Shown here one piece after another: positions 15,567 through 39,811 of a stretch of 64,000 bases of DNA (position 1 is its first letter; each line of letters begins with the position of its first letter). The notes below the pieces were generated by a model. The model saw only the letters and a list, made by a program, of their open reading frames with translations. It did no database searches and was not told the DNA's origin. Source of the DNA: Ensifer sp. BR816 (GTDB taxonomy: Bacteria; Pseudomonadota; Alphaproteobacteria; Rhizobiales; Rhizobiaceae). The translations under genes were made by a program, and so were the position numbers. The stretch is from positions 3,248,604 to 3,312,603 of the forward strand of contig NZ_KB905370.1 in the NCBI RefSeq assembly GCF_000378985.1, given 5' to 3'.

Positions 15567-15569
15567 TCA

Positions 15570-24148: not shown

Positions 24149-24169
24149 GCGCGCACCGGCGCGATCGAT

Positions 24170-24204: not shown

Positions 24205-24219
24205 GCGTTTTGTGGCCTC

Positions 24220-24882: not shown

Positions 24883-24919
24883 CGACGTTCTCCGCCCATT
24901 GCGTGCCACCCTGCCACCA

Positions 24920-25405: not shown

Positions 25406-25466
25406 GCTGCCTCCGCTCGCCATGGCTGGCGCCAACGAGGGCGCCGAGCCGTAACTTTGTCGAGGG

Positions 25467-25904: not shown

Positions 25905-25979
25905 TGTCCTGCTCCTTTCTTGGAAGTCGATCCCTGGTCCGTGCCCGCCGTTCACGGCCACGCCCAAGCAGGCGGGCCC

Positions 25980-26225
25980 CTAGTGGGCCCGCGCTCCGTT
26001 CCTCGTCGATCTTCCCCGCGGCGAAGGCGTCTTCGGCGTCGACACGGCATTGGTCGCCCCCTCGCTTTCGAGGCTTTCGCCTCCATCGGGGTTCGACGCA
26101 CCCTGGCCCTGCATTTCACGCGCTGCCTGTTCCCAGTGGCGCTGATGCTGGCCGTCCGGACGGCCTTCCTGTTCCCAGATCGCGTAAGCCCGCCGCTTGA
26201 TCAGTTCTTCCCTGTCTTTTTCCAT
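25980..26225 (-). CDS. DUF2934-domain small protein
   Basis: 81 residues. The DUF2934 signature is at the N-terminus (IKRRAYAIWEQEGRPDGQ followed by HWEQA), then a polar tail rich in G, S, E and T ending in basic residues. ATG 26225 is chosen because the domain begins here and GAGGTAAGGG lies upstream. A general-stress-type promoter at 26267-26291 ends 42 bases before the start. Function unknown; likely first gene of a stress operon that continues to the CBS gene. Confidence 0.8.
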   Translation of the reverse strand: MEKDREELIKRRAYAIWEQEGRPDGQHQRHWEQAAREMQGQGASNPDGGESLESEGATNAVSTPKTPSPRGRSTRNGARAH

Positions 26226-26266
26226 GTCCCTTACCTCGCTGTTGGAAGCCTTGTCGGCGAAGTGCA

Positions 26267-26291
26267 AACGGGACGACCGCCCATTTGTTCC
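26267..26291 (-). promoter_or_regulatory. RpoE2/EcfG-type promoter, DUF2934 gene
   Basis: On the minus strand GGAAC (26291-26287), 17 bases, then GTT (26269-26267). This matches the general-stress sigma promoter of alphaproteobacteria and ends 42 bases before ATG 26225. Confidence 0.7.
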
Positions 26292-26322
26292 ATGGGCCAG
26301 AAGCTATTCTGGCATCGAACGC

Positions 26323-26481
26323 CTAGTCGGCGAAATGCTTGGGAGGCTCCGGATTTTCGTCGGGATTTGGTACGGGCGCCTCGTCCGGCAGGCGATCTGG
26401 TTCAGGCTCGCCGATCGGCGGCTCCGGCTCCCAAGGCGGAGGTTGGGGCGAAGTCGGATCCGGCTGACGCGGATTTGGCAT
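26323..26481 (-). CDS. Proline- and glutamate-rich 52-residue protein
   Basis: A short frame from ATG 26481 to TAG 26323, with GGAGGCAGGAA directly upstream as ribosome site. The product is almost entirely P, E, D and N with repeated PEP/EPEP patterns (for example WEPEPPIGEPEPDRLPDEAP) and ends HFAD. It is predicted to be disordered, acidic and soluble. A weaker stress-type promoter (26520-26544) lies 39 bases upstream. Function unknown. The composition and the ribosome site make a real gene more likely than chance. Confidence 0.6.
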   Translation of the reverse strand: MPNPRQPDPTSPQPPPWEPEPPIGEPEPDRLPDEAPVPNPDENPEPPKHFAD

Positions 26482-26519
26482 TTCCTGCCTCCGTTCGTCG
26501 AAAGGGTTGTCGATGAGAC

Positions 26520-26544
26520 AATCCCCCTCGTTCGGGAATGTTCC
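26520..26544 (-). promoter_or_regulatory. Possible RpoE2/EcfG-type promoter, 52-residue protein gene
   Basis: Minus-strand GGAAC (26544-26540), 18 bases, then TT (26521-26520) preceded by A rather than G. It is weaker than the other sites but well placed, 39 bases before ATG 26481. Confidence 0.4.
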
Positions 26545-26594
26545 ACGAGAGGGCGGCTATGACTGCCCGGGACTGGTTTCGCTGGCGGGCGACC

Positions 26595-28682
26595 TCACGC
26601 CCGAGGAGCCAGAGGGACGAAAGCGGCGACGCTCTGCGCAGGGATCGTCTCCCGATCCTTGGCGATGTGCGTGACGAAGGCCTCGTCCTCGGCGGTGTTG
26701 AGCGCCCATCGCCAATCCTCGGCGCCGTGTGCGGGCGGCAGCACGACGTCACAGTCGCCGCCGGCATTGAAGACGAGGAATAGCTCTCCCGGCGCCTCGG
26801 CGGTTGAGAGGCGGCAGAGATAGACGCCAAGAATGCGCAATTCGCCATCGCCCCACTCCGCCTCGTCCATCTGGCTGCCATCGGGCTTGTACCAGGCGAT
26901 CTCGATGCGTCCGTGCTCGTCGATGGCGCCTTCGAGAAAGTTTTCCTGGCGCAGCACCGGATGCTCCCGCCGGAAGGCGATCATCTTGCGGCAGAAGTCG
27001 AGGAAGGCGTCGTCTGTCCGGCTCCAGTCGATCCAGCCGATCTCGTTGTCCTGGCAATAGGCATTGTTGTTTCCGCCCTGGCTGTTGCCGAGTTCATCGC
27101 CGCCGAGAACCATCGGAACGCCCTGGCCGAGCATCAGGGTGGCGAGCATGGCGGAGCGGCGGCGCCGCCGTGCCCGGTCGATCGCGGGGTCATCGGTTGG
27201 CCCCTCGGCACCCATATTGTCGGAGTGGTTGTCCGAGTGGCCGTCGCGATTGTCCTCGCCGTTGGCCTCGTTGTGCTTCTCCGCATAGGAAACCGTATCC
27301 ATCAGCGTGAAGCCGTCATGCGCGCTCAAGAGATTGACCGACGTGGTCGCGGCGCGGCCGGAATGGTTGAACTGAACGGGCGAGCCCGCGAGCCGTTCGG
27401 CAAGCACCGGCACAACGCCGCCGTCTCCCTTCCAGAAGCGGCGGACGTCGTCGCGGAAGCGGTCGTTCCACTCGCGGAAGGGTGGCGGAAAGCCGCCGAG
27501 CTGGTAGCCGCCCTCGCCGATATCCCAGGGCTCCGCAATGAGCTTAACGCCGGCGAGGATCGGATCCTGCCTGATCGCGTCGAAAAAACCGCCCTCGCGG
27601 TCGAACTCCATGTATTCGCGCCCCAGCGCGCTCGCCAGGTCGAAGCGGAAACCGTCGATGTGCATGACGCCGACCCAGTAGCGGAGGCTGTCGAGCACCA
27701 TGCGCAGCACCATGGGGTGCGCGACATTCAGTGTATTGCCGGTGCCGGTCATGTCAAATGTGTGTCGGAGCTGCTCCGGCGACTGGCGGTAATAGCTGAG
27801 ATTGTCGAGGCCGCGGAAGCTGAGCGTCGGCCCCTGTTCCGAACCCTCGGCGGTGTGGTTGTAGACGACGTCCATCAAAACCTCGATGCCGGCGGCATGG
27901 AAGCGCTTCACCATCGTCTTGAACTCGGTAATCCTGGTCCCCGTGAGGTAGCGCGCCTGCGGCGCAAAATACCCGAGCGGCTGGTAACCCCAATAGTTTC
28001 TGAGGCTCCGTTCGGCCAGGTACCGGTCGTCGAGGAAATATTGCACCGGCAGGAGCTCGACCGCGGAGACACCGAGCTTCGTCAGATGATCAATGATCGG
28101 ATCGCTGGCCATGCCGAGAAAGGTGCCGCGCAACTCGTCCGGCACGCCCGGATGCGTCATGGTCATGCCGCGAAGGTGGGTCTCGTAGATGATCGTCTCC
28201 GTCCAGGGCCGGCGGATCGCCTCCTCGCCGTCCCAGTCGAAGGTCGGATCCTGAACGACGCCCTTGACCATGAGGGGTCCGCTATCGCGCTCGTCAAAGG
28301 AGAGGTCGCCCTCCGGGCTGCCGATGGTGTAGCCGAACAGCGCGTCGTCCCAGGCGAACTGCCCAGCCACCTGTTTCGCATAGGGATCGAGCAGCAGCTT
28401 GTTCGGGTTGAAACGATGTCCGTTGTGCGGGTCATAGGGCCCGTAGGCGCGGTAACCGTAGAGCGTGCCTGGACCAAGCCCCTCGATATATCCGGACCAG
28501 ATATCGCCTTCCCGTTTCGGCAGGGGAAGGCGGGCCGTCTCCTTGCTGCCATCCTCGGAAAAGAGACAGAGCTCGATGGTCTCGGCATGGGCGGAAAACA
28601 CCGCGAAATGCGTGCCCTGGCCGGTATATTCGGCGCCGAGTTCCGGCTTCAGGAAATCCAGTTCGGAGAAAGCCACATTCAT
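26595..28682 (-). CDS. glgX: Glycogen debranching enzyme (isoamylase type)
   Basis: 695 residues. N-terminal CBM48 (about residues 10-110), then a GH13 domain with MDVVYNHTAEGS, DGFRFDLASALGR (nucleophile Asp), LIAEPWDIGEGG (acid/base Glu) and LLSAHDGFTL. It removes alpha-1,6 branches of glycogen. ATG 28682 is chosen because upstream codons fall under a stress-type promoter (28726-28751) and the family begins at about this point. It is divergent from treZ. In the TreX-TreY-TreZ route debranching feeds trehalose synthesis, but no treY is in the window. Confidence 0.93.
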   Translation of the reverse strand: MNVAFSELDFLKPELGAEYTGQGTHFAVFSAHAETIELCLFSEDGSKETARLPLPKREGDIWSGYIEGLGPGTLYGYRAYGPYDPHNGHRFNPNKLLLDPYAKQVAGQFAWDDALFGYTIGSPEGDLSFDERDSGPLMVKGVVQDPTFDWDGEEAIRRPWTETIIYETHLRGMTMTHPGVPDELRGTFLGMASDPIIDHLTKLGVSAVELLPVQYFLDDRYLAERSLRNYWGYQPLGYFAPQARYLTGTRITEFKTMVKRFHAAGIEVLMDVVYNHTAEGSEQGPTLSFRGLDNLSYYRQSPEQLRHTFDMTGTGNTLNVAHPMVLRMVLDSLRYWVGVMHIDGFRFDLASALGREYMEFDREGGFFDAIRQDPILAGVKLIAEPWDIGEGGYQLGGFPPPFREWNDRFRDDVRRFWKGDGGVVPVLAERLAGSPVQFNHSGRAATTSVNLLSAHDGFTLMDTVSYAEKHNEANGEDNRDGHSDNHSDNMGAEGPTDDPAIDRARRRRRSAMLATLMLGQGVPMVLGGDELGNSQGGNNNAYCQDNEIGWIDWSRTDDAFLDFCRKMIAFRREHPVLRQENFLEGAIDEHGRIEIAWYKPDGSQMDEAEWGDGELRILGVYLCRLSTAEAPGELFLVFNAGGDCDVVLPPAHGAEDWRWALNTAEDEAFVTHIAKDRETIPAQSVAAFVPLAPRA

Positions 28683-28725
28683 TCGTGTCGTCGCGCCCCC
28701 TGCAGCGTCGTGGAAGTGAGGGGGC

Positions 28726-28751
28726 AACGCCGACGGGTGGAAATTTGTTCC
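28726..28751 (-). promoter_or_regulatory. RpoE2/EcfG-type promoter, glgX
   Basis: Minus-strand GGAAC (28751-28747), 18 bases, GTT (28728-28726). It ends 44 bases before the glgX ATG and lies back to back with the treZ promoter. Confidence 0.72.
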
Positions 28752-28780
28752 GGCGACCGGCCCCACGCCGAAGGTGCGGC

Positions 28781-28806
28781 GGAACTTTCGGCGTGTCCCG
28801 GCAGTT
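28781..28806 (+). promoter_or_regulatory. RpoE2/EcfG-type promoter, treZ
   Basis: GGAAC (28781-28785), 18 bases, GTT (28804-28806), ending 40 bases before the treZ ATG. Together with 28726-28751 it forms a divergent stress promoter pair. Confidence 0.72.
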
Positions 28807-28845
28807 TTCATCTCTTGCCGATCTGATAGCAGCAAGGAAAAACGA

Positions 28846-30615
28846 ATGCCCAACCATGTCCGGAAGACTTGGGGCGCCGTCCTCACGTCTGGCGATGTCG
28901 CGCACTTTCGCCTATGGGCGCCCGACGAGCCTGCCGTTCGCCTCGTTCTCGATGGTGCCCCGCACCCGATGCGGGCGCTCGAGGGCGGCTGGTTCGAAGT
29001 CTCGGCGCGGGCGCGAGCGGGAGACCGATATTGGTTCGAGCTTTCCGACGGGACGCGCGTCGCCGATGCCGCCTCCTGCGCCCAGGCGGAGGGGGCCAGC
29101 GGCCCGTCGGTGCTCGTCGATCAGTCGGTCTACGAGTGGCGGGCCGCCTCCTGGCGCGGTCGCCCGTGGGAAGAGGCGATCATCTCGGAGCTGCATGTCG
29201 GCTGCTTTACGCCGGAAGGCACGTTTCGCGCGGCGGCCAGGCGGCTGCCGGATCTCGCCGAAGCCGGGATCACCGCGATCGAGATCATGCCGGTCGTCGA
29301 GTTTCCGGGGGTGCGCGGCTGGGGCTATGACGGCGTGCTGCCCTACGCGCCACACCATGCCTATGGAACGCCGGACGACCTCAAGGCGCTGGTCGATGCG
29401 GCGCACGGGCTCGATATGATGGTCTTGCTCGACGTCGTCTATAATCACTTCGGACCACTGCACAATGACCTAGGCCGCTACGCCGGCCGCTTCTTCAACA
29501 GCGATCGACCGACGCCATGGGGGGCCTCGATAGCCTTCGAGGAGCCCGCGGTGCGACGCTTTTTCATCGAGAATGCACTCTATTGGCTCGGTGACTACCG
29601 CTTCGACGGGCTGCGCCTCGATGCGACGGACCAGATACGCGACACCAGCGAGCCGCATTTTCTTGCCGCGCTGGCGCGCGAGGTACGCGAGACATTTACC
29701 GATCGAAGCGTCCATCTGGTGATCGAGGATGCCGCCCATCGCCGCACTCTGCTGCGGCGCGACGCCGACGGGGCGGTCGCGTTCTTCACCGCCGGATGGA
29801 ACGACGATGTTCACCACGCCCACCATGTAATGACGACAGGCGAAGCAAAGGGCCACTATCGGCCTTTCGCCAAGAACCCCTGGAAGGCATTGCACGAAGC
29901 GATGACCGACGGCTTCGCTTCGTTTGAGACGTCCAAAGGAGTGCCCGCTCATCAGGCAGCTGTGCCACCGCAGGCGCGGGTGAGCTACCTTCAAAACCAC
30001 GATCAGATCGGAAACCGGGCCTTTGGCGAGCGCCTCGTTTCGCTTGTCGGCAGTGAACAGCTACACGTGATGACCGCAATGCTGATGCTCTCGCCGCAGA
30101 TTCCCCTGCTCTTCATGGGCGAGGAATATGCGGAAGACCAGCCATTCCTGTTCTTCGCCGATTATCAGGGCGAACTCGGCGAGGCCGTTCGTTGCGGGCG
30201 GCAAGGCGAGGCCGAGAATTTCGGCGGCATGCCGCACGGCAAGACGGCCGATGATCTTCCCGATCCGCTCGATCCTCGCACCTTCGCCGATTCCAAGCTT
30301 CGCTGGGAACGCGCGGAGAGCCCGGCGGGCAGGCTCCATCTCGCCTTCATGCGTCAACTCGCCGATATCCGGCAACGGCACATCGTACCGCTCCTCTCGG
30401 ATTGCGGTCTCCCGAGCTTTGAGGTCCATCCGGCCGGTGACGGCATTGTCGCCATCGACTGGTCGTTCGCAGGGCCCGTTCTCGAGCTCCGGGCCAATCT
30501 CCTGGCAGAGAGGCGATCCGTTCCGCCGATCCGCGGCGAACCCATTTATGGTGGCGAAAACCTGGAAGGCTCCGAATTGCCGGGGCCGGGTTTCGTTGCT
30601 GCCGTCAGGCGTTGA
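28846..30615 (+). CDS. treZ: Maltooligosyltrehalose trehalohydrolase
   Basis: 589 residues. N-terminal E-set/CBM48-like domain (FRLWAPDEPAVRLVLDG), then GH13 with LDVVYNHFGP, DGLRLDATDQI (nucleophile Asp), LVIEDAAHRR (acid/base Glu) and SYLQNHDQIGN. It releases trehalose from maltooligosyltrehalose made by TreY. ATG 28846 follows AAGGAAA. The partner treY is not in the window. The divergent glgX and the stress promoters point to trehalose made from glycogen under desiccation, osmotic or stationary stress. Confidence 0.94.
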   Translation: MPNHVRKTWGAVLTSGDVAHFRLWAPDEPAVRLVLDGAPHPMRALEGGWFEVSARARAGDRYWFELSDGTRVADAASCAQAEGASGPSVLVDQSVYEWRAASWRGRPWEEAIISELHVGCFTPEGTFRAAARRLPDLAEAGITAIEIMPVVEFPGVRGWGYDGVLPYAPHHAYGTPDDLKALVDAAHGLDMMVLLDVVYNHFGPLHNDLGRYAGRFFNSDRPTPWGASIAFEEPAVRRFFIENALYWLGDYRFDGLRLDATDQIRDTSEPHFLAALAREVRETFTDRSVHLVIEDAAHRRTLLRRDADGAVAFFTAGWNDDVHHAHHVMTTGEAKGHYRPFAKNPWKALHEAMTDGFASFETSKGVPAHQAAVPPQARVSYLQNHDQIGNRAFGERLVSLVGSEQLHVMTAMLMLSPQIPLLFMGEEYAEDQPFLFFADYQGELGEAVRCGRQGEAENFGGMPHGKTADDLPDPLDPRTFADSKLRWERAESPAGRLHLAFMRQLADIRQRHIVPLLSDCGLPSFEVHPAGDGIVAIDWSFAGPVLELRANLLAERRSVPPIRGEPIYGGENLEGSELPGPGFVAAVRR

Positions 30616-30630
30616 GCCAGGTTGGTGATC

Positions 30631-30655
30631 GGAACATGGCAGCGGCCCGGTAGTT
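30631..30655 (+). promoter_or_regulatory. RpoE2/EcfG-type promoter, udgX
   Basis: GGAAC (30631-30635), 17 bases, GTT (30653-30655), directly after treZ and 49 bases before ATG 30704. It also makes the possible TTG start at 30662 unlikely, as that would sit on the transcript start. Confidence 0.68.
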
Positions 30656-30703
30656 TGGTCCTTGAGACGATTGATATGGATCGAGGCTTCCGCCTTTCGA
30701 CAC

Positions 30704-31345
30704 ATGCCGCGTGAACCCGTCAAAATGGGCCCGGCCCTCTCCGGCGAGCATGCCGAGGCAAACTCCATCGCGGCGCTGCGCAAACAGGCCGAGGGCTGCG
30801 AACGCTGCGACCTCTACAAACACGCCACGCAGCTCGTGTTCGGCGAAGGACCGGGCGAGGCGCGCGTCGTCCTGGTCGGCGAACAGCCTGGCGATCGCGA
30901 GGATCTGGCGGGTCGTCCCTTCGTCGGTCCAGCCGGGCGAATTCTCGACGAATGCCTGCACGAGGCGGGTATCGATCGCTCGAGCTGCTATCTCACCAAT
31001 GCGGTCAAGCATTTCAAATTCGAAGAGCGCGGCAAGCGCCGGCTGCATTCGCGGCCAAACGCCGGCGAGATCGAGCGTTGTTCCTGGTGGCTCGGCGCAG
31101 AGCTCGAGGAGCTACACCCCAAGGTCGTCGTGGCGCTCGGCGCAACGGCACTTGCTTCGCTGCTCGGACGCCGCGCCGGCGTGCTGAAAAACCGCGGCGA
31201 CCTGATCACCACGCCCGCCGGCTATCCTGTCCTCGTTACGATCCATCCCTCCTATCTCCTGAGAATCCGGAACAGAGTGGACGCCGCGGCGGAACGCGGA
31301 CGCTTCGTCAAGGATCTCGCCAAGATCGCGGCCCAGGTCGAGTAG
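30704..31345 (+). CDS. UdgX-type uracil-DNA-binding protein/glycosylase
   Basis: 213 residues of the uracil-DNA glycosylase superfamily. GEQPGDRED (residues 59-67) and KRRLH (residues 111-115) are the UdgX hallmarks: in UdgX the His of the KRRIH loop traps uracil-DNA covalently. Iron-sulfur cysteines are likely at 32, 35 and 126, plus one further. Ordinary family-4 enzymes lack the KRRxH loop. The start is uncertain (ATG 30704 or 30725). A stress-type promoter lies just upstream, and other DNA-repair genes follow within 5 kb. Confidence 0.88.
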   Translation: MPREPVKMGPALSGEHAEANSIAALRKQAEGCERCDLYKHATQLVFGEGPGEARVVLVGEQPGDREDLAGRPFVGPAGRILDECLHEAGIDRSSCYLTNAVKHFKFEERGKRRLHSRPNAGEIERCSWWLGAELEELHPKVVVALGATALASLLGRRAGVLKNRGDLITTPAGYPVLVTIHPSYLLRIRNRVDAAAERGRFVKDLAKIAAQVE

Positions 31346-31349
31346 AGGC

Positions 31350-32072
31350 TCACGCCTGACGATCGAGCTCGGGATAATGTCGGAAAACGCAGGATTCGTT
31401 GAAGGGCAAGCGCCGATCGGAGGCTAGGTAGCTGCGAATGCGCGGGCGCGCCGCTACCGCATCGTGCAGCGCAATGAGCGTCGGGACCTGATCCTCGCAG
31501 GCACCCATGGCGTTTGGAAACGCATAGCGCAGCCCCTCGACCAGCTGAAACAGTGAAAGATCGACATAGCTCAGTTGCCCGCCGACACTGTGCTCCCGGC
31601 CCTCGGGATTTTCCGTGAGAACACGCTCGAAATGGCCGAGATATTTCGGCAGGCGCTCCGACAGAAAGTTCGCGGTGCGCTTTTCCGCTTCGAGCCGCTG
31701 CTCCTCGTAATAGAGTGACACGCCGATCGGGTGGTGCGTGTCGTGTACCTCTGCGACGCAATCGGTGATCGTCAGTTGCAGACCGTTGGCAACGTAGCGG
31801 AGATCCTCTTCCTCCGGCGCCAACCCCAATCTCGGGCCGAGATAGAACAGGATATTGGCAACGTGGGAAATCACCAGTTCGCCATCGACCAGAAACGGCG
31901 GCGCGAAGGGTACGGTTGCCTCGCCGGCGTCCTTCATCATCCTTAGCATCGCGTCGGTGCCGCCTGGCTGGCGCGCGACGTCGAGATAGTCGACCCCCGC
32001 CTCCTCGAAAGCGAGACGCACAAATTCGCCGCGGCCGGGGATACCGTCCCAGTAGTAGAGCTTGAACGCCAT
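31350..32072 (-). CDS. Glutathione S-transferase family protein
   Basis: 240 residues. N-terminal thioredoxin-like domain (LYYWDGIPGRGEFVRLAFEE, then VPFAPPFLVDGELVISHV), followed by an all-helical GST C-terminal domain from about residue 95 (LSYVDLSLFQLVEGL). It probably conjugates glutathione to electrophiles or peroxides in the cytoplasm. It lies downstream of, and close to, the DUF3175 and 71-residue genes, perhaps in one stress transcript driven from 32652-32676. Confidence 0.87.
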   Translation of the reverse strand: MAFKLYYWDGIPGRGEFVRLAFEEAGVDYLDVARQPGGTDAMLRMMKDAGEATVPFAPPFLVDGELVISHVANILFYLGPRLGLAPEEEDLRYVANGLQLTITDCVAEVHDTHHPIGVSLYYEEQRLEAEKRTANFLSERLPKYLGHFERVLTENPEGREHSVGGQLSYVDLSLFQLVEGLRYAFPNAMGACEDQVPTLIALHDAVAARPRIRSYLASDRRLPFNESCVFRHYPELDRQA

Positions 32073-32091
32073 GAGATGCCCTCGTTTGCAG

Positions 32092-32390
32092 TTACCCTGC
32101 GGGCGTGCGCCCGAAATCCCTTCTGAGCTCGTCTTTCGCCTTTTCCAGCACGTGCTTCTGTTCCCGGCTCAATCCCGATCCTGCCCGTTGATGTAGAAGG
32201 TCAGCATGGACATGGCGGACCGGTACGCGCTCGACTTGCGCCGGTCGCTCGCTTCTGCAGATCGTTTCAGGGAGCTTGCAATCTGATGGGGATCCTTAGA
32301 CGCAAAAATCCCCGCTTCGATGTCCAGCGCGTTGCTGTGCGCCGTCACCCCTTGCGACCATTTCGTCTTCTTTTTAATGCTCTTGCCCAT
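32092..32390 (-). pseudogene. DUF3175 gene with a frameshift near its end
   Basis: From ATG 32390 the frame encodes a DUF3175-type protein (SNALDIEAGIFASKDPHQIA, SSLKRSAEASDRRK, SAMSMLTFYING) and stops at 32169 as INGQDRD. One frame over, the sequence continues without a break as LSREQKHVLEKAKDELRRDF, which is the expected C-terminal helix of this family, and stops at 32092. A single-base slip near 32175 would explain it. It could be a true mutation, a tolerated shortening (the shorter 73-residue product may still be made) or a sequencing error. The operon context is the 71-residue gene 17 bases upstream and the GST gene downstream. Confidence 0.6.
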
Positions 32391-32407
32391 CGAGCCTTAT
32401 GGGCATT

Positions 32408-32623
32408 TCAGCGCAACCAGACGGGCAACTCGGAAGCCTGCCGGAATTCGCGTGCCCGGTCCTTCCAGCCGAGCTTTTCCCAGGCGAACTGCTGGGCGGC
32501 GACCCTCGCCGTTTCCTTCGTGGGATAGATATCCGGCAATACATAGTCCTTGTCGCCGCAGCAGAGCAGTGCCCTGCCGCTCATCAGATCGAAATGCAGC
32601 TCCAGGCATACTTCGTCCTGCAT
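32408..32623 (-). CDS. Small conserved-looking cytoplasmic protein (71 residues)
   Basis: 71 residues without a recognised domain: an N-terminal beta-strand pattern (MQDEVCLELHFDLMSGRALL), CCGDKDYVLPDIYPT, then an amphipathic helix rich in A, E and W. ATG 32623 is chosen for GGGAGGG six bases upstream; ATG 32641 has none. A stress-type promoter (32652-32676) lies 29 bases before the start. First gene of a likely operon with DUF3175 and GST. Confidence 0.65.
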   Translation of the reverse strand: MQDEVCLELHFDLMSGRALLCCGDKDYVLPDIYPTKETARVAAQQFAWEKLGWKDRAREFRQASELPVWLR

Positions 32624-32651
32624 GAAATCCCTCCCGGACATGATCGATTAA

Positions 32652-32676
32652 AACGGTCCTTGGGAGAGGAAGTTCC
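32652..32676 (-). promoter_or_regulatory. RpoE2/EcfG-type promoter, 71-residue gene
   Basis: Minus-strand GGAAC (32676-32672), 17 bases, GTT (32654-32652), 29 bases before ATG 32623. It diverges from the similar site at 32737. Confidence 0.7.
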
Positions 32677-32736
32677 AACCGCCGCGACGAGGTCCCGAAA
32701 AATCCGCATCCTTCGCCGTCTGGCGTCACGTGCCCG

Positions 32737-32761
32737 GGAACATCGGCGCCTGCCCGGAGTT
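32737..32761 (+). promoter_or_regulatory. RpoE2/EcfG-type promoter, 109-residue gene
   Basis: GGAAC (32737-32741), 17 bases, GTT (32759-32761), 25 bases before ATG 32786. Confidence 0.7.
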
Positions 32762-32785
32762 AAGTGCGCTTACGGGAGGCGAACC

Positions 32786-33115
32786 ATGAACAAGTATGGA
32801 AAAACCCGTTCATCGTCGAGTGCCGCACGCCCGCTCGATCCGCCGGGCGTCGACGAGCCCGTCGATGCGCGGAAACGCCAGACGGCAAGATCGCAGGCGT
32901 CGATCCGGCAACAAATCATTGAAATACGCGAGCGCATCGGCGGGCTCGAAGCCGAAATCGACGCGATCGCGACCGAGGCACACACTGCCATAGGTACATT
33001 GCCCGGTGCCGACCGGATTGAAACGGCAAAGGATGTGGTGGCCGAGAAGCGCGACGAGATTCAGAAGCTGAAGTCGCGTCTGGAGGATATCGAGAGGCTC
33101 GTTGCGACCGAGTAG
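32786..33115 (+). CDS. Small coiled-coil protein
   Basis: 109 residues. A polar, disordered N-terminus (KTRSSSSAARPLDPPG) is followed by about 75 residues of heptad-like sequence (IRQQIIEIRERIGGLEAEID, then AKDVVAEKRDEIQKLKSRLE), so a coiled coil is likely. GGGAGG lies six bases before ATG 32786. I recognise no family. The divergent stress promoters at 32652 and 32737 place it in the general-stress set. Confidence 0.68.
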   Translation: MNKYGKTRSSSSAARPLDPPGVDEPVDARKRQTARSQASIRQQIIEIRERIGGLEAEIDAIATEAHTAIGTLPGADRIETAKDVVAEKRDEIQKLKSRLEDIERLVATE

Positions 33116-33224
33116 CCGCTCCGGCTGAACCGTCGCCGTTGCAGACGGCCATTAAAAGACTGTCATCCACACGCCGCGCCAGAAGAGCGAAGTCGGGCCG
33201 TCGAGGTCTTCGTGCTCGTCAACT

Positions 33225-33335
33225 CTATAGCGCAGTCGGTACTCCGCCGGCCGCGCCCCCGGCCTCCGGCAGCAATGGACGTCTCTTCTTGTCCTCCTCC
33301 TCCGCGGCAACCGGGTTTGTGATTGTAACCATCAT
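33225..33335 (-). CDS. Stress-promoter-driven microprotein (36 residues)
   Basis: A 36-residue frame (ATG 33335, or ATG 33332) reading MMVTITNPVAAEEEDKKRRP and ending in a G/A/P-rich tail. GGAGG at 33345-33341 is the ribosome site. A full RpoE2-type promoter (33360-33384) lies 25 bases upstream, the same spacing seen for neighbouring stress genes. These two signals, rather than the sequence itself, are the evidence for a gene. Function unknown. The region 33116-33224 between it and the 109-residue gene shows nothing else. Confidence 0.5.
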   Translation of the reverse strand: MMVTITNPVAAEEEDKKRRPLLPEAGGAAGGVPTAL

Positions 33336-33359
33336 CAAATCCTCCGGTGGTCCAACGGG

Positions 33360-33384
33360 AACCACCGGGCAAGGAAAGCGTTCC
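33360..33384 (-). promoter_or_regulatory. RpoE2/EcfG-type promoter, 36-residue microprotein
   Basis: Minus-strand GGAAC (33384-33380), 17 bases, GTT (33362-33360), 25 bases before ATG 33335. Confidence 0.65.
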
Positions 33385-33402
33385 AGTGAACGCTCCGCGA
33401 AC

Positions 33403-33666
33403 TCAGTCGCGATCGATGAACTTGAAGAATCGACTGACTTTCCCGTCTTCGGTCCGGTCCTGGTAGAGGAAGGTGAGCTTGTTCTCGTCAAAAATCTCGA
33501 AGAACTGCTCCCAGGGGATTGCCTCCAGCCTTTCCTCGGGCTTGCCGAAGTCGATGCGCAGCAATCCGCCATCGGATGCGCCCCTGACGCGAGCCGGGTG
33601 GCCGTCGCGTCCCTCTGCCCATTTGCGGATTATGTCGTGGTTGGTCGTGGTCTTGGAAGCGCTCAC
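33403..33666 (-). CDS. Small protein of unknown function (87 residues)
   Basis: 87 residues starting at GTG 33666 with GGAGGAGG upstream. The sequence begins TTTNHDIIRKWAEGRDGHPA and continues with LLRIDFGKPE, IPWEQFFEIFDENKLTFLYQ and SRFFKFIDRD, a compact mixed alpha/beta pattern that looks conserved. Homologues are sometimes labelled as branching-enzyme-related, but no enzymatic motif is present. A weaker stress-type promoter may lie at 33741-33765. Confidence 0.68.
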   Translation of the reverse strand: MSASKTTTNHDIIRKWAEGRDGHPARVRGASDGGLLRIDFGKPEERLEAIPWEQFFEIFDENKLTFLYQDRTEDGKVSRFFKFIDRD

Positions 33667-33740
33667 CGGAACCTCCTCCAGCTTGGTTGTCTTGCGCGGG
33701 CGAGGCCAAGCACCGTCTTCGCCCGGAACTCGCGCACCCT

Positions 33741-33765
33741 AATCGACCGGCTGGATGATTGTTCC
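33741..33765 (-). promoter_or_regulatory. Possible RpoE2/EcfG-type promoter, 87-residue gene
   Basis: Minus-strand GGAAC (33765-33761), 18 bases, TT (33742-33741) preceded by A. It is 75 bases before GTG 33666 and overlaps the region just before the DUF763 stop. Weaker than the others. Confidence 0.35.
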
Positions 33766-33769
33766 TGAA

Positions 33770-35056
33770 TCAGTTGCGGGTACGGCTTCTAACGGCGGCT
33801 GTGTCGCCGTCCCTGCCGCCCTCATGCTCGCGCTCCCAGCCGAACACGCTGCGGCCACCGAAGCGGGCCGAATCCCTGAACTCCCCGGCGACGATTTCCT
33901 TGAGGTCCGGCCCGGTGACGTAACGCTCCAGACGGCGCGACTGGTCGTCGAGCCGCCTCAAGGCAGCGAGTTCCTCCTCTTGCCCGAGCCGTCCCTTCTG
34001 GACTGCCGATTTCATCACGTTGATCGTCTCGTCATAGACCTTGAGCGGCACCGGAAAGGGGTGGCGGTCCTTGCCGCCATGGGCGAGCGAAAAGCGCGCC
34101 GGGTCGGAAAAACGGCACGGCGTGCCGTGCACTACCTCGGCGACCATGGCGAGCGCCTTGACGGTGCGCGCGCCGACACCCGGCACGAGAAGCAGTTCCT
34201 CGAAGTCTTTCGGTCCTCGATCGGCAGCGGCGGCAAGATTGCCGTGCAGGCGCCGCATGTTCACGTCGCTTTCGCGGACATCGTGATGGGCCGGCATGAA
34301 GAGGTGCGGCAGCATCGGCTGGGCCGGCGCCGCTGGTCCCGCACCGCGCGCCTCGATTGTCGCCAGCTCGCGCACCAACCCATCGGGTCCGAGCGCACGC
34401 AAGAGATCGAGCTGGCTCGTTCGCGAGGCGCCCGCCCGCCGGTCCGCAAGGTTGATGATCTTGCCCTGCTCCCGCCCCTCGATCGCCGCATGCGGCGAGT
34501 CGACGAAACTTTCCAGGCCCTCGGAAAGCCAATGATAGCGCCGCGCCTGCCGCCGGTCGCCGTTCATCCCCTGCTGGACGACGACCCATTTTGCATCGTC
34601 GGTGACGATGAAGCCATGGAGATAGAGGTCGAAGCCGTCTTGGACGGCGGCGCTGTCGACCTTGGCGACGAGGCGGCTCGCATCGGCAAGCGCCGCACCG
34701 TCAAAACCGATGCGATCGCCGATCGTGACGAGTTCGCCCGGCGTCTTGCGGGAATGCTGGCCGCGGCCGCCGCAGACGTGAATGCCAAGCTCGCCCGAAA
34801 GAGGCGTCAAGCCGCGCTTCAGGGCGCCGATGACGCTGGTGGTGATGCCTGACGAATGCCAATCCATGCCCATGACCGAGCCAAAGGACTGGAACCAGAA
34901 CGGGTGGGCAAGCCGCCTCAGGAATTCGTCGCGCCCGTAATGCTGGACGATCGCCTCGGTGATCAGCGCGCCGAGCCGCGTCATGCGGTCGCCGAGCCAC
35001 TTCGGAACCCGCCCACCATGCAGGGGAAGATCCGCATTGCCCGCTCGTTGCGCCAT
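33770..35056 (-). CDS. DUF763-domain protein
   Basis: 428 residues of the DUF763 family (starts RAGNADLPLHGGRVPKWL; RRYHWLSEGLESFVDSPHAA near residue 172; FEELLLVPGVGARTVKALA near residue 286). The last segment is a helix-hairpin-helix-like element, which suggests DNA binding. The family occurs in archaea and scattered bacteria, and its biochemical role is not known to me. It sits amid UdgX, 3-methyladenine glycosylase and DNA ligase genes, so a DNA-repair role is a reasonable inference. Confidence 0.85.
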   Translation of the reverse strand: MAQRAGNADLPLHGGRVPKWLGDRMTRLGALITEAIVQHYGRDEFLRRLAHPFWFQSFGSVMGMDWHSSGITTSVIGALKRGLTPLSGELGIHVCGGRGQHSRKTPGELVTIGDRIGFDGAALADASRLVAKVDSAAVQDGFDLYLHGFIVTDDAKWVVVQQGMNGDRRQARRYHWLSEGLESFVDSPHAAIEGREQGKIINLADRRAGASRTSQLDLLRALGPDGLVRELATIEARGAGPAAPAQPMLPHLFMPAHHDVRESDVNMRRLHGNLAAAADRGPKDFEELLLVPGVGARTVKALAMVAEVVHGTPCRFSDPARFSLAHGGKDRHPFPVPLKVYDETINVMKSAVQKGRLGQEEELAALRRLDDQSRRLERYVTGPDLKEIVAGEFRDSARFGGRSVFGWEREHEGGRDGDTAAVRSRTRN

Positions 35057-35210
35057 CGTGTTTGATCCTTCGTATGCGATATGGGCGTCACACTACAGGT
35101 TTCGGATGTTCGCGGAAAGTTCTCAATGGACACATGATGAAACCGGAAGACAACGTTGGCGAGCGCGAGGGGAGCGTTTAAGATTGGCACGGACCGGGAG
35201 GCGCGATCGA

Positions 35211-35759
35211 TTGAAGTGGGATGACAGTTTCTTTGCGCGCGACGCCGTCGCGGTCGCCGCCGACCTGATCGGCGCCGAATTTTGCGTTTCCGGCGTTGGC
35301 GGCATCATTGTCGAGACGGAAGCCTATCTGCCGGGCGACGCCGCATCCCACAGCTTCGCCGGCGCGACCAACCGCAATCGTGCGATGTTCGGCCCGCCGG
35401 CGCATGCCTATGTCTACCTGTCCTACGGCCTCCACTGGTGCCTGAACTTCGTCTGCCTTCCCGGCAGTGCCGTGCTCATCCGCGCGATCGAGCCCAAATG
35501 GGGGCAGGAGACGATGCGGCGGCGGCGCGGCGTCTCGCAAGAAAGGTTGCTCTGTTCCGGGCCGGGAAGGGTCGGCCAGGCGCTCGCGATCGGCAAGGAA
35601 CAGGACGGCTTGCCACTCGACGGAAAGCCGTTCCAACTGAGCCCGCCGACGAAGCGCCCACCACTTGCAACCGGCCTTCGCGTCGGAATATCCAAAGCCG
35701 TCGAGCACCCATGGCGCTTCGGATTGAAGGACTCACCCTTCCTCAGCCGCAAGTTCTAA
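35211..35759 (+). CDS. DNA-3-methyladenine glycosylase (AAG/MPG family)
   Basis: 182 residues from the TTG at 35211. Features of the eukaryotic-type AAG fold: FFARDAVAVAADLIGAEFCV, IIVETEAYLPGDAASHSFAG, NRNRAMFGPPAHAYVYLSYG and a C-terminal GLRVGISKAVEHPWRFG. It excises alkylated purines. The start is uncertain: GGGAGG stands nine bases before TTG 35211, a TTG at 35184 also has a ribosome-like site, and ATG 35106 is further upstream. Its stop overlaps the converging ligase gene by 27 bases. Confidence 0.88.
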   Translation: MKWDDSFFARDAVAVAADLIGAEFCVSGVGGIIVETEAYLPGDAASHSFAGATNRNRAMFGPPAHAYVYLSYGLHWCLNFVCLPGSAVLIRAIEPKWGQETMRRRRGVSQERLLCSGPGRVGQALAIGKEQDGLPLDGKPFQLSPPTKRPPLATGLRVGISKAVEHPWRFGLKDSPFLSRKF

Positions 35760-36851
35760 ACGCGGCTCGATCTGCTCATAGGTGCATTGGCGCGGGTCCT
35801 TGTCGGGACGCCAGCGCATCAATTTCGTACCGTGGCGAAAGCGACGGCTGCTGACGTGATCGAACCTCACCTCGACCACCAGTTCCGGCCGAACCGGTTC
35901 CCATTCGCCGCTGCGCTCCGTGCTCCAGCGGCTCGGGCCGCCGGGTGCCTTGCCGGTAAAGCCGGGCGGCTCGCGTAACGACTCGAGCCGCCGCGTCAAT
36001 GCGGGCCGTTCCTTGTCGGAGATCGTCGCAGTGAAGCCCACATGGTTAAGCGTGCCGTCCGCGTCGTAAAGGCCGAGGAGAAGGGAACCAACCGCGTCAC
36101 TCTTGTTCTCGTAGCGGAAGCCGCCGACAACGCAATCGGCCGTCTTCAGGCGCTTGACCTTGACCATCGCCCGCTCGCCGCACGCATAGGGCCCGTCGCG
36201 CCGCTTGACGACGACACCGTCGGTGGCGCCGGGTTCCCATGAGGCCAGCCAGCGCTCGGCCTCCTGACGGTCGAGCGTATAGGGCGAAAGCTCGAGCTTA
36301 TCCGCAACGGCGTTCTCGGCGACAAAGGCTTCGAGTGCCGCTCTGCGGACGGGAAGAGGCTTGTCGGTCAGGATTGCTCCTTCCCGGTCGACCAACATGT
36401 CGAACAGGATGAGCCGAGCAGGCGTCAGCCGAGAGAGCTTTTCAACGCGGCTTGCCGCCGGATGCAGGCGCATCTGCAGGGCGTCAAAGGAAAGACGACC
36501 GTCGACTTCGATCACCAGTTCGCCGTCGACGACGAACTGCGTAGCGTCGAGCTGGCGCAGCTGCTCGACGATTTCCGGGAAGAAGCGCCCGAGCGGTTTG
36601 CCGGATTTTGCCCGGAGATCGACCGCCTCGCCGGATTTGAAGGCGAGGCAGCGAAACCCGTCCCATTTCGGCTCATATTGCCATGCCCCGTCACTCGGGA
36701 GCTGCGTAGCCGAGCGTGCTTCCATCGGTGCGGTGCTCACCGGCAGGCCGAAGCCGTCGGCCGATGCCGCGCCGGTCGCGACCTTTGCATTTCTGGTCGG
36801 GCGCGGCAGCCCGGCTTCCTTGCTCGGTTTTCGATTCGCGGGTGACGACAT
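35733..36851 (-). CDS. ATP-dependent DNA ligase (LigD-ligase-domain/LigC type)
   Basis: 372 residues. Motif I is EPKWDGFRC near residue 59 with the adenylated Lys. Motif III is LILFDML near residue 145 and motif IV TDGVVVKRRDG near residue 210. The OB-fold begins near residue 250, with PELVVEVRFDHVS near residue 323. No polymerase or nuclease domain is fused, so it is a stand-alone repair ligase of the Ku/LigD/LigC group. It starts 25 bases after the catalase gene and is probably co-transcribed from the stress promoter at 39031-39055. Confidence 0.92.
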   Translation of the reverse strand: MSSPANRKPSKEAGLPRPTRNAKVATGAASADGFGLPVSTAPMEARSATQLPSDGAWQYEPKWDGFRCLAFKSGEAVDLRAKSGKPLGRFFPEIVEQLRQLDATQFVVDGELVIEVDGRLSFDALQMRLHPAASRVEKLSRLTPARLILFDMLVDREGAILTDKPLPVRRAALEAFVAENAVADKLELSPYTLDRQEAERWLASWEPGATDGVVVKRRDGPYACGERAMVKVKRLKTADCVVGGFRYENKSDAVGSLLLGLYDADGTLNHVGFTATISDKERPALTRRLESLREPPGFTGKAPGGPSRWSTERSGEWEPVRPELVVEVRFDHVSSRRFRHGTKLMRWRPDKDPRQCTYEQIEPRLELAAEEG

Positions 36852-36876
36852 CTTTCACGCCCCTGGCGGTTCTGGC

Positions 36877-38994
36877 CTATTTCAGCTTGACGGAGGGCTC
36901 CCTCGCCCAGACGCGAAGCTTGCCGAGTTCCTTGAGGAACGAGGCGACACTCCTGGCGTCTTTCAATTCGATCGTTCCTTCGTCGAGAGAATCGGCGATG
37001 CCCGCTCGCTGCATCAGTGGCAGCGCCGACCCCGCATAGCCGATAAATTTGCAATGGGCGAAGGCATCGGCCACGAAGTCGCGGGCGGTGGCGACATCGA
37101 TCAGCTCGTCTACCGCGTCTGCCGAAGGGAGCAGCACCACTGCATCGTAAAGCACGGACGGACCGCCATCGAGCATCTGGTGGGCTGCGACCCACCTCCC
37201 GTCCGAGGCGGTGAAGCCGCTGATCTTCGGGGCGATCACTTCGTACAGGGCCTTCTCCTTGGTGACGGCCGCCGTGACTGCGTCGAGCAACTGGGCGTCC
37301 GCGCCATCCGTTGCCAAGATGCCGAGCTTGCGGCCTTCGAACCGCTTCGGACCGCGCTCGATGATACTGAGCGCCGGCGACGGATCGAGATCCTGCCGGG
37401 TCGCCACTGCCGCTTCTGCCGGCTTCGGCATGGTCTTGAAGCCGAGCGCATGGCCGACCTTCTTGCCGAGCGACTCGTCTATGTTGAGAAGATGGGCGAC
37501 CATCCGCTCGCGGATCACCGGCGTCTCCACCTTGCTCAATTCGAAGGTCAGGGCGTCGGCGATATGGCGCTGCTCGGGCGGGGTCTGGCTGATGAAGAAC
37601 TGGCGCGCCTGGCTATAGTGATCCGCGAAGCTTTCCGCCCGAATGCGAAGCTTCGGCCCCTGCTCCTCCGATGCAAAATGGCGGAAGCCCTTCGTCGGCG
37701 ACTCGCGCGGTCCCTCGCCCCAGGAGTTCGGCTGGTAGTTCACCCGGCCGACCGGGTTGCGCATGGCCATGTGACCGTCCTGCTGGAAGTGTTGGAAGGG
37801 ACATTTGGGTGCGTTGATCGGCAGATGGGTGAAATTCGGGCTGCCGAGCCGCTTCAACTGCGTGTCGAGATAGGAGAAGTTGCGACCCTGCAGCAAAGGA
37901 TCGTCGCTGAAGTCGATGCCCGGCGGCACGTTCTGTGTCATGAAGGCAACCTGCTCGGTCTCGGCGAAGAAGTTGTCCGGCATGCGATCCAGAACCAGCC
38001 GCCCGACAGGTTTCGTCGGCAGGACCTCCTCCGGAATGATCTTGGTCGGATCGAGGATGTCGAAATCGAACTTGTCGGCAAAGTCCTGGTCGAAAAGCTG
38101 CACCTGCAGCTCCCACTCCGGGAAATTCCCGGACTGAATGGCCAGCCACAGGTCGCGCCGGTGGAAGTCGGGGTCCGCACCGTTGATCTTCACCGCCTCG
38201 TTCCAGGCAACGGACTGCAGGCCCAGTTTCGGTTTCCAGTGGAACTTGACGAAGGTGGAATCGTCCTTGGCATTGACGAAGCGGAAGGTGTGAACGCCGA
38301 AGCCCTCCATGAAGCGGAAGGAACGGGGGATTGCCCGGTCGGACATGACCCACATGACCATATGCATGCTTTCCGGCGTCAGGCTGATGAAATCCCAGAA
38401 ATTGTCGTGCGCCGATTGCGCCTGTGGAAACTCCCGGTCGGGCTCCGGCTTTACCGCGTGTATGACGTCCGGAAATTTGATTGCGTCCTGGATGAAGAAG
38501 ACGGGGATGTTGTTTCCGACGAGGTCCCAATTGCCCTCCTTGGTGTAGATCTTGACGGCGAAACCGCGCACGTCGCGTGCAAGGTCGACGGAACCCTTGC
38601 TGCCGGCAACCGTCGAGAAGCGCACGAAGGCGGGCGTCTTTTCGCCGGCCCGCTGAAAAAGGTCCGCCCGCGTATAGGCGGCAAGCGATTCATAGGTCTC
38701 GAAGAAGCCATGCGCGCCATAGCCGCGAGCATGCACCACACGCTCCGGGATACGCTCATGGTCGAAGTGGAAAAGCTTTTCGCGGAAATGGAAATCCTCG
38801 ATCAATGTCGGGCCGCGCGCGCCGGCGCGCAGGCTGTTCTGATCGTCGGCAACCGGTCCGCCCTGCGCCGTCGTCAAGATGGGAGTGTCGCCTTCGGCGA
38901 TCTGATGAAGTTCTCCGCCGTTGCCGCGGGTCGCCTTCTGGTCGTGGATGGTGGCCGGCTTCGATTTGTTCGGCGCAGAGGGTTTCTTGGCCAT
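36877..38994 (-). CDS. katE: Large-subunit monofunctional catalase (HPII type)
   Basis: 705 residues. The heme-catalase core is present, with [15 protein letters not shown] near residue 86 (distal His), the [20 protein letters not shown] block, and [13 protein letters not shown] near residue 376 (heme-ligand Tyr). A C-terminal flavodoxin/DJ-1-like domain (from about residue 550, [20 protein letters not shown]) marks the large HPII subtype. It disproportionates hydrogen peroxide. A stress-type promoter ends 37 bases before ATG 38994. In Sinorhizobium a catalase of this type (katC) is known to be general-stress controlled. Confidence 0.95.
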
Positions 38995-39030
38995 CGCAAC
39001 GCTCCTTGATCGGGGATGGAATGGCCACGA

Positions 39031-39055
39031 AACCTTGGCCGCGGAGGTTGGTTCC
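39031..39055 (-). promoter_or_regulatory. RpoE2/EcfG-type promoter, catalase gene
   Basis: Minus-strand GGAAC (39055-39051), 17 bases, GTT (39033-39031), 37 bases before the catalase ATG. Confidence 0.75.
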
Positions 39056-39096
39056 CCCGCGAGCCGAATTTTAGGAATTCTCGGTGCTGGAGGTCG

Positions 39097-39558
39097 TCAG
39101 CCTTGATAGGTGCCGATAAGATCAGCCTCCGCGATCCGGTGCTTGTGCGCTTCTGCCCAGGCCTGCGCTGCCCCGACATCATCCGAGATCGACATATTGC
39201 GGGTGTCCAGCGCGGCGAGCTTGAAGTGATAGTGATGGACGCCCGTTCCCGCCGGCGGCTGCGGCCCGTCATAGCGCGCATTGCCGAAATCGTTCCTGAT
39301 GAACTTGATGGCATGTTCCGGTCCGGTATCGACGGCTTCGGAAAGCTCGGTCCAATTGCCAGGTATGTTGACGATGGCACAATGCCGAAAAACGCCCCTG
39401 ACGGCATCCGGATCCTCGACGATCAATGCGAAGCTCTGCGTCCCGTCGGGTGTACCCGTCCATTTCAGCGGCGGAAAAATGTTCTCGCCGAAGCGCGTGT
39501 ATTTTTTCGGGATCGCCTGGCCTTCGGCGAAGGCGGGGCTTATCAGGCTGAAAGTCAT
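39097..39558 (-). CDS. YbhB/YbcL-type Raf-kinase-inhibitor-like (PEBP) protein
   Basis: 153 residues, phosphatidylethanolamine-binding-protein fold: FGENIFPPLKWTGTPDGTQS, VEDPDAVRGVFRHCAIVNIP and GVHHYHFKLAALD are the family landmarks. ATG 39558 follows AAGGAG. The ligand is unknown; bacterial members are small cytoplasmic proteins of unclear role. A short upstream frame ends at the TGA that overlaps this ATG (TGATG), hinting at translational coupling. Confidence 0.87.
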   Translation of the reverse strand: MTFSLISPAFAEGQAIPKKYTRFGENIFPPLKWTGTPDGTQSFALIVEDPDAVRGVFRHCAIVNIPGNWTELSEAVDTGPEHAIKFIRNDFGNARYDGPQPPAGTGVHHYHFKLAALDTRNMSISDDVGAAQAWAEAHKHRIAEADLIGTYQG

Positions 39559-39770
39559 CACCAGTCTCCTTCCATGTTGGCACATTGAACGAGCGCACGA
39601 CCATCATGATTGTACCCCCAAAGCGGGTCGGAGTTGAGGCCGCCGGCGGGAAACGCCCCCAACAGAATGGCCCCGCCGCCGCCCGCGCCGCCGGCGGTCC
39701 AAAAATTTCGATTCCGGTGCGGAACTTTGCGCAGTGGTTGGTGTTGAAGGTAGTGCATAGGTGGGCGGCG
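39558..39770 (-). other. Possible short frame coupled to the PEBP gene
   Basis: On the minus strand a frame rich in glycine (FWTAGGAGGGGAILLGAFP) and ending in LWGYNHDGRALVQCANMEGD stops with a TGA that shares its A with the PEBP start codon. The start is unclear and no good ribosome site is seen, so I mark it only as a possible small gene. Otherwise the 250 bases between PEBP and glgA hold only the glgA promoter. Confidence 0.2.
39721..39745 (+). promoter_or_regulatory. RpoE2/EcfG-type promoter, glgA
   Basis: GGAAC (39721-39725), 17 bases, GTT (39743-39745), 67 bases before ATG 39812. Confidence 0.62.
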
Positions 39771-39811
39771 GCTGGCCGGCAACGGCCAAGACAATTTCCG
39801 GAACATGATCG

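What the first reader, a model, noticed from the sequence alone, without database searches (positions are those of the whole stretch)
26267..39745. Dense island of RpoE2/EcfG general-stress promoters covering metabolism, DNA repair and small unknown proteins
In about 13.5 kb I find nine sites with GGAAC, 17-18 bases and GTT (26267, 28726, 28781, 30631, 32652, 32737, 33360, 39031, 39721 as left ends) and two with TT only (26520, 33741). All point at a nearby gene start on the right strand, mostly 25-67 bases away. The targets are glgX, treZ, glgA, catalase (with DNA ligase), UdgX, DUF2934 (with CBS and others) and several proteins of unknown function. The motif is the established general-stress promoter of alphaproteobacteria. 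That this is one coordinated stress island is my inference. It would define the unknown genes as stress-response members.
Basis: partly seen in the sequence, partly recalled or inferred. Interest (0 to 1): 0.75.

Follow-up and report, generated by a model that had tools for sequence, protein, structure and literature searches.

The report
Conserved general-stress promoter cluster in Sinorhizobium
In this root-nodule bacterium a 15-kb stretch packs about ten separately switched genes for sugar storage, peroxide defence, DNA repair and several unknown small proteins behind the same known stress-response switch, an arrangement kept across the genus and partly proven already in a relative.

Summary
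All nine GGAAC-N17/18-GTT sites and both TT-only sites exist; an overlapping plus-strand hit at 33358 was missed. All 10 hits of the 64-kb window fall in these 13.5 kb. Single hits mean little genome-wide (359 hits; reversed control 389), but this is the densest 14-kb stretch of the main contig. Conservation decides: in 16 Sinorhizobium loci eight sites recur in place in 109 of 111 cells; 33360 recurs in 8 of 16, 33358 in 0 of 16. The TT-only sites recur before 29 of 32 relatives' genes. The genome encodes PhyR, NepR and EcfG, with the motif in their own promoter region. The S. meliloti counterpart of site 26267 is a published RpoE2 promoter (PMC6180224; located); katC, glgA2 and glgX2 are reported RpoE2-dependent there (PMC2651895). 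So this is a real, old regulon cluster, probably not mobile, and not the only one in the genome. New details: the TT-only sites form a GGAACAWTC-N12-GATT subclass, and one precedes an unlisted 52-residue proline-rich protein. Not every gene in the stretch has a site.

The parts
26267..26291 (-). EcfG/RpoE2 promoter of DUF2934 (then CBS); counterpart of the published SMb21442 promoter
   Evidence: (16/16)
25980..26225 (-). DUF2934 protein, 81 aa
25467..25904 (-). CBS-domain protein (SMb21441 counterpart by position), reached by read-through
26520..26544 (-). GATT-class promoter GGAACATTC-N12-GATT
   Evidence: a GATT-class site precedes the same gene in 13 of 16 relatives
26323..26481 (-). 52-aa proline-rich small protein, below the 60-aa limit of the open-frame list
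   Evidence: best match E<=3e-23 in 16 of 16 Sinorhizobium loci; no Pfam match
28726..28751 (-). promoter of glgX
   Evidence: 15/16 in place; 16/16 relatives within 220 nt
26595..28682 (-). GlgX glycogen debranching enzyme
   Evidence: TIGR02100
28781..28806 (+). promoter of treZ
   Evidence: 16/16
28846..30615 (+). TreZ malto-oligosyltrehalose trehalohydrolase
   Evidence: TIGR02402
30631..30655 (+). promoter of udgX
   Evidence: 15/16 in place; 16/16 within 220 nt
30704..31345 (+). UdgX family uracil-DNA binding protein
   Evidence: TIGR03914
32652..32676 (-). promoter of the 77-aa unknown protein, possibly reading on into DUF3175 and GST
   Evidence: 16/16
32408..32641 (-). unknown 77-aa protein (conserved start probably Met7 at 32623)
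   Evidence: 18 sequences; no Pfam match
32169..32390 (-). DUF3175 protein, downstream of 32408-32641
31350..32072 (-). glutathione S-transferase, downstream of DUF3175
32737..32761 (+). promoter of the 109-aa unknown protein
   Evidence: 16/16
32786..33115 (+). unknown 109-aa coiled-coil-like protein; in the plasmid collection matched only in Sinorhizobium records
   Evidence: (76 of 76 records)
33360..33384 (-). EcfG site (minus) in front of a small open frame; overlaps the 33358 plus-strand hit, which is not conserved
   Evidence: 8/16 minus; 0/16 plus; L008 has it too, at another spacing
33225..33335 (-). 36-aa open frame; in 7 of 8 other loci read out the gene behind this site is 58-62 aa and ends in WRGxWMxVF
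33741..33765 (-). GATT-class promoter GGAACAATC-N12-GATT
   Evidence: 17 of 17, window included
33403..33666 (-). unknown 87-aa protein, relatives on plasmids of Rhizobium, Rhodococcus, Azospirillum, Halomarina
39031..39055 (-). promoter of katE (then ligase)
   Evidence: 4/4
36877..38994 (-). HPII-type catalase (KatE)
   Evidence: best model PRK11249, below its cut-off: 921 against 1102 bits
35733..36851 (-). ATP-dependent DNA ligase, 25 bases behind katE
39721..39745 (+). promoter of glgA
   Evidence: 11/11
39812..41266 (+). GlgA glycogen synthase

Best explanation
The stretch is a cluster of general-stress-response genes of a Sinorhizobium, on DNA that in relatives lies on 1.5-2.5-Mb replicons. 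Under stress PhyR takes NepR off the sigma factor EcfG (RpoE2), and RNA polymerase with EcfG starts transcription at about ten separate promoters of the type GGAAC-N17/18-GTT, two of them of the type GGAACAWTC-N12-GATT. Each drives one gene or a short operon: glgX, treZ and glgA (glycogen and trehalose metabolism), catalase with DNA ligase, UdgX, DUF2934 with CBS, and four small unknown proteins. Shown here: the sites, their place, their conservation, and the regulator genes. Published for S. meliloti: RpoE2 dependence of some counterparts. Established knowledge (recalled, and summarised in the papers seen): the PhyR-NepR-EcfG switch. Inferred: use of each promoter in this strain, the operons, and the joint protective role (desiccation, salt, peroxide).
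For: Sites and orientation. Conserved in place: 109 of 111 cells for eight sites, against 55 of 250 cells for intergenic hits of permuted motifs; a GTT-class site within 220 nt before 119 of 119 genes and a GATT-class site before 31 of 34, window included, while spacer positions vary. PhyR, NepR, EcfG and an HWE kinase lie together, with three sites between phyR and nepR. Density around UdgX: 0.53 per kb in 16 Sinorhizobium loci (reversed motif 0.09), 0.40 in 7 other Hyphomicrobiales loci (0.06), 0.05 in 36 non-alpha loci (0.03). Background of 600 kb: 24 sites, 5 outside predicted genes, 2 promoter-like. The A-subset GGAACA-N-GTT exceeds its reversed control in 32 of 32 genus genomes, 3285 against 1798. 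S. meliloti: SMb21442 promoter with log2 change 4.4 on RpoE2 overexpression, found exactly in front of the DUF2934 counterpart; katC, glgA2, glgX2 RpoE2-dependent.
Against: In the own genome the full motif is not over-represented (359 against 389 reversed), so the motif alone proves nothing. Site 33360 is kept in 8 of 16 loci and its plus-strand twin in none. My gene caller put 2 of the 10 sites inside a gene and found no target for the 33358/33360 pair; I overruled it on homology for the first two. Several genes in the stretch have no site. In the two Rhizobiaceae loci that share the core, one search shows no GTT site before udgX or glgX. No call ties the names katC, glgA2 and glgX2 to these very genes. 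No expression data exist here for this strain. A study of Ensifer aridi reports no phenotypic alteration in an rpoE2 deletion (PMC8877191, passages).
Confidence: 0.94

Rival explanations
1. The sites are chance matches in a GC-rich genome that happen to be crowded here.
For: The own-genome count does not exceed the reversed control; other clusters exist.
Against: Conservation in place across 16 loci of named Sinorhizobium/Ensifer records while spacers diverge; shuffles and scan statistics.
Confidence: 0.02
2. The promoters belong mainly to another ECF sigma factor with overlapping taste (an ECF15 paralogue such as RpoE5, or RpoE6), not to EcfG/RpoE2.
For: A second sigma gene with a PhyR-like sigma2 domain sits in another site-rich cluster (L127); PMC6180224 reports that 27 of RpoE6's 40 targets overlap with RpoE2's, and lists SMb21442 for both.
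Against: In the same paper RpoE2 activates SMb21442 more strongly (4.4 against 2.0), and RpoE5 overexpression gave one target.
Confidence: 0.08
3. A horizontally acquired genomic island that brought its own stress genes.
For: Gene content between the promoters varies between species (extra BON, topoisomerase IB and cupin genes in S. meliloti ABS7).
Against: UdgX of at least 60% identity in 33 of 33 genus genomes (own included; one match partial), the same gene order in near relatives, no tRNA gene in the window.
Confidence: 0.05

Closest known systems
S. meliloti RpoE2 (EcfG, group ECF15) general stress regulon
   Same: Same promoter elements and several of the same genes: SMb21442-SMb21441 (DUF2934, CBS), treZ = SMb21447. 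katC, glgA2 and glgX2 are taken as counterparts by name and recollection; no call ties the names.
   Different: In S. meliloti 1021 the katE-ligase match lies at about 10 kb of pSymB and the rest at about 1.37-1.38 Mb of 1.68 Mb, some 0.3 Mb apart across the record start; here they are together.
UdgX-treZ-glgX clusters of other Rhizobiaceae (loci L021, L022)
   Same: Same core (glgX, treZ, udgX, DUF2934, the 77-aa and 87-aa proteins) and 13 and 15 EcfG-type hits in 20 kb.
   Different: Other cargo: Ku, GlgC-like nucleotidyl transferase, DUF892, sensor kinases; one search shows no GTT site before their udgX and glgX.
Other EcfG-site clusters of the same genome (C1: 273-281 kb, 1465-1474 kb, 2852-2858 kb, 4133-4139 kb)
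   Same: Most sites lie outside predicted genes (6 of 6, 4 of 6, 7 of 7, 7 of 8); small proteins, CBS, SDR, AI-2E transporters.
   Different: Fewer merged sites in 14 kb (6 to 8 against 9) and a different gene set.

Membership tests
EcfG/RpoE2 (ECF15) regulon | -35 GGAAC and -10 GTT (or TT) at 17-18 bases, in front of the gene on the right strand | tested here: met
   exception 33358 plus, for which no target was found
EcfG/RpoE2 (ECF15) regulon | elements conserved between species while the spacer drifts | tested here: met
   33360 only in half of the loci
EcfG/RpoE2 (ECF15) regulon | genome encodes EcfG with PhyR and NepR, whose own promoter region carries the motif | tested here: met
EcfG/RpoE2 (ECF15) regulon | transcription start just after the -10 and dependence on the sigma factor | not testable with these tools
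   published for S. meliloti only: dependence, mapped promoter of SMb21442
Mobile genomic island | patchy presence in the genus, tRNA-linked insertion | tested here: not met
   (UdgX only); integrase genes and composition were not examined
GATT-class promoters as EcfG promoters | TT in register with the GTT class, conserved in front of genes | tested here: met
GATT-class promoters as EcfG promoters | recognised by EcfG rather than by another sigma factor | not testable with these tools
   the published rpoE5 promoter, RpoE2-dependent, reads GGAAC-N17-ATT (PMC6180224 Table 1)

The most novel reading that the evidence does not exclude
Rhizobiaceae keep their general stress regulon in a few conserved clusters in which unrelated genes stay neighbours although each has its own EcfG promoter, and within it there is a second promoter class (GGAACAWTC-N12-GATT) used for particular small proteins, such as a 52-residue proline-rich one, that may answer to a different level or partner of the sigma factor.
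Probability: 0.3. Interest if true: 0.55.

Novelty: new member of a known kind. Interest (0 to 1): 0.36.

Why it matters
It moves several unknown small proteins and repair genes (UdgX, a DNA ligase) from the unknown list to the likely general stress regulon of a whole genus, with conserved promoters as evidence, and gives a ready set of reporters. It also suggests that clustering of separately promoted stress genes is old, which bears on why bacteria keep regulon members together without making them operons. The kind of system itself is well known.

Tried and rejected
Rejected: bidirectional promoter at 33358/33360 as a feature. The plus-strand half is in 0 of 16 relatives, and 10 overlapping pairs among 326 sites on C1 looked unremarkable to me (my estimate, no test).

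Rejected: the third GATT-class hit of the genome (C1:4138604) as a promoter. It lies inside a predicted alpha-amylase-family gene, on the other strand (L133); its sequence is identical in six relatives.

Not settled: whether the AWTC extension goes with GATT rather than GTT. In 32 genomes GGAACAWTC-GATT has 93 hits, of which 41 lie within 12 kb of udgX (26 genomes); GGAACAWTC-GTT has 195; GGAAC-GATT has 2627; GGAACA-GTT has 3285 against 1798 reversed (summed). One search, which used a wider -10 ([ACT]TT) and a place tolerance, counted 15/16 for 33741 and 14/16 for 26520, which asked for GATT within 220 nt, counted 16/16 and 13/16.

Led nowhere: Rfam on 23500-42500 (0 matches); tRNAs (0); PDB profile search for the 87-aa protein (best E 0.27); Pfam for the small proteins (for the 109-aa protein only weak matches below every cut-off, and two NCBIfam matches at 19-20 bits against cut-offs of 300 and 420). 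SMb21456, named an RpoE2 target, was not tied to this stretch by the other papers. The full S. meliloti gene lists are in supplements that could not be opened.

Background choice: of 40 fetched 20-kb stretches I counted 30 as background (12 flanking, 18 at arbitrary places) and set aside 10 that I had picked because they held several hits (L125-L127, L133-L139). Their sites are given for five of the ten.
Full report
What was checked. The pattern GGAAC-N17/18-GTT has 10 matches in the 64-kb window, all between 26267 and 39745; 100 shuffles give 2.47 on average and at most 7. The tenth hit is the plus-strand reading of the 33360 site.

Whole genome. The window lies at 3,248,604-3,312,603 of a 6.13-Mb contig of a 6.95-Mb genome. 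The pattern occurs 359 times against 389 for the reversed pattern, so a lone match is worth little. By the base after GGAAC the counts and reversed controls are A 91/66, T 75/93, C 96/82, G 97/148, so the A-subset is mildly enriched and the G-subset depleted. On the large contig (326 hits, 316 after merging) the stretch holds the highest count in 14 kb: 9 merged sites, P = 0.0002 from 5000 random placements. With 6-kb windows another cluster (4133167, 7 sites) leads this one (6 sites), and with 10 kb they tie at 7. The window size was chosen knowing the finding. In 30 background stretches of 20 kb there were 24 sites, 5 outside predicted genes and 2 promoter-like. My simple gene caller labels 6 of the 10 island sites promoter-like, puts 2 inside a long frame that I take as spurious, and finds no target for the 33358/33360 pair.

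Conservation. Around UdgX I fetched 80 of 120 confirmed loci; 16 are titled Sinorhizobium or Ensifer. Mapping by gene start, eight sites recur in 109 of 111 gene-by-locus cells: treZ 16/16, udgX 15/16, 32786 16/16, glgA 11/11, katE 4/4, 32408 16/16, glgX 15/16, DUF2934 16/16. 33360 minus recurs in 8/16 (L008 has it at another spacing) and 33358 plus in 0/16. The 89 permuted control motifs have on average 0.21 intergenic hits, and these recur in 55 of 250 cells. With a plain test (site on the right strand within 220 nt of the start), 119 of 119 GTT-class genes and 31 of 34 GATT-class genes, window included, have it. Fewer cells exist for katE and glgA because the loci end or the genes lie elsewhere.

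The regulator. NepR occurs twice. At C1:2.14 Mb a PhyR, a NepR, an ECF sigma factor and an HWE kinase lie together, with three sites between phyR and nepR. A second NepR-PhyR pair lies at 0.28 Mb, again with sites, and a second sigma gene with a PhyR-like sigma2 domain in the 2.85-Mb cluster.

Published support. PMC6180224 (passages, and part 1 of its section 6) lists SMb21442 and SMb21441 (CBS) with log2 changes of 4.4 and 3.8 on RpoE2 overexpression, and a mapped promoter that I found exactly in S. meliloti 1021 pSymB, in front of a reading frame that by eye matches DUF2934 of the window; the two 25-base sites agree in 22 positions by my count. PMC2651895 (passages) names katC, glgA2 and glgX2 among the RpoE2-dependent genes under heat; that these are the counterparts of katE, glgA and glgX here rests on names and recollection. 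PMC4960864 (passages) names treZ as smb21447. PMC3616915 (passages) reports 76 RpoE2-dependent genes with a mapped start and motif; its gene tables are supplements that I could not open. PMC8877191 (passages) reports no phenotypic alteration of an rpoE2 deletion in Ensifer aridi. Sauviac 2007 and Flechard 2010 were not read. In eight searches I saw no title or abstract listing that describes the cluster as such; they cover only openly licensed papers and show the top of each list.

Gene content. glgX, treZ, glgA, UdgX, DNA ligase and a long catalase were supported by profile. The 26520 site precedes a 52-residue proline-rich protein at 26323-26481 (minus), which the open-frame list with a 60-residue limit could not show; it is found in 16 of 16 Sinorhizobium loci. 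The 87-residue protein at 33403-33666 matches 177 plasmid records, among them Rhizobium, Azospirillum, Rhodococcus and Halomarina; the 109-residue protein matches 76, all Sinorhizobium. Behind site 33360 seven of eight other loci read out carry a 58-62-residue protein; in this window and in L003 the frame is cut short. MPG glycosylase, DUF763 and PEBP have no GTT-class site before them here; PEBP does in several relatives, as do DUF3175 in eight and GST in three of the loci visible (its output was cut within L011).

The GATT subclass. The two TT-only sites share GGAACAWTC-N12-GATT, with TT in register with the GTT class. Across the 31 examples position 6 is always A, 8 is T in 97% and 9 is C in 90%. 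In the own genome the pattern has 3 hits and 0 reversed, one of them inside a gene; in 32 genus genomes 93 hits and 1 reversed, 41 of them within 12 kb of udgX. Whether EcfG itself reads it is open; the published RpoE2-dependent rpoE5 promoter also ends in ATT.

Reach. Outside the genus, two Rhizobiaceae loci keep the core and have 13 and 15 hits in 20 kb with partly different cargo, though no GTT site before udgX or glgX. In one search, 20 Methylobacterium UdgX loci have 0.09 hits per kb (reversed 0.01), the one Sphingomonas locus none, and 36 non-alphaproteobacterial loci 31 hits against 19 reversed in 602 kb.

Verdict. The system is a known kind; the added value is the conservation evidence, the small genes and the promoter subclass.

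Noticed in passing
whole contig C1 (6,127,971 bases); window 25400-41400: In ten records of the plasmid collection nearly the whole stretch lies on replicons of 1.5-2.5 Mb, but here (and in G022) UdgX lies on a contig above 6 Mb, which suggests that the chromid is fused to the chromosome in this genome. Replication genes were not checked, and the collection holds only plasmids.
   Followed up: partly
L133 (C1:4125001-4145000), about 8167-13668: A second EcfG-site cluster, 8 hits in 5.5 kb, with DUF982, an AI-2E transporter, an endonuclease/phosphatase-family protein, a weak LPG-synthase-like match and a 1104-aa alpha-amylase-family protein.
   Followed up: partly
L127 (C1:2840001-2860000), about 12057-18115: Seven hits around a second ECF15-like sigma factor, DUF3008, DUF1236, CBS, SDR, iron permease and DUF982 genes.
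   Followed up: partly
L125 (C1:270001-290000), about 3587-10609: Second NepR-PhyR locus with six hits, all outside predicted genes, near DUF1328, MgtC and AI-2E transporter genes.
   Followed up: partly
window 33225-33335: Small open frame cut short relative to 58-62-aa counterparts in seven other Sinorhizobium loci, although its stress promoter is kept.
   Followed up: partly
window 33741-33765: In this GATT-class site AATC and GATT are inverted repeats 12 bases apart, so an operator overlapping the promoter is possible.
   Followed up: no
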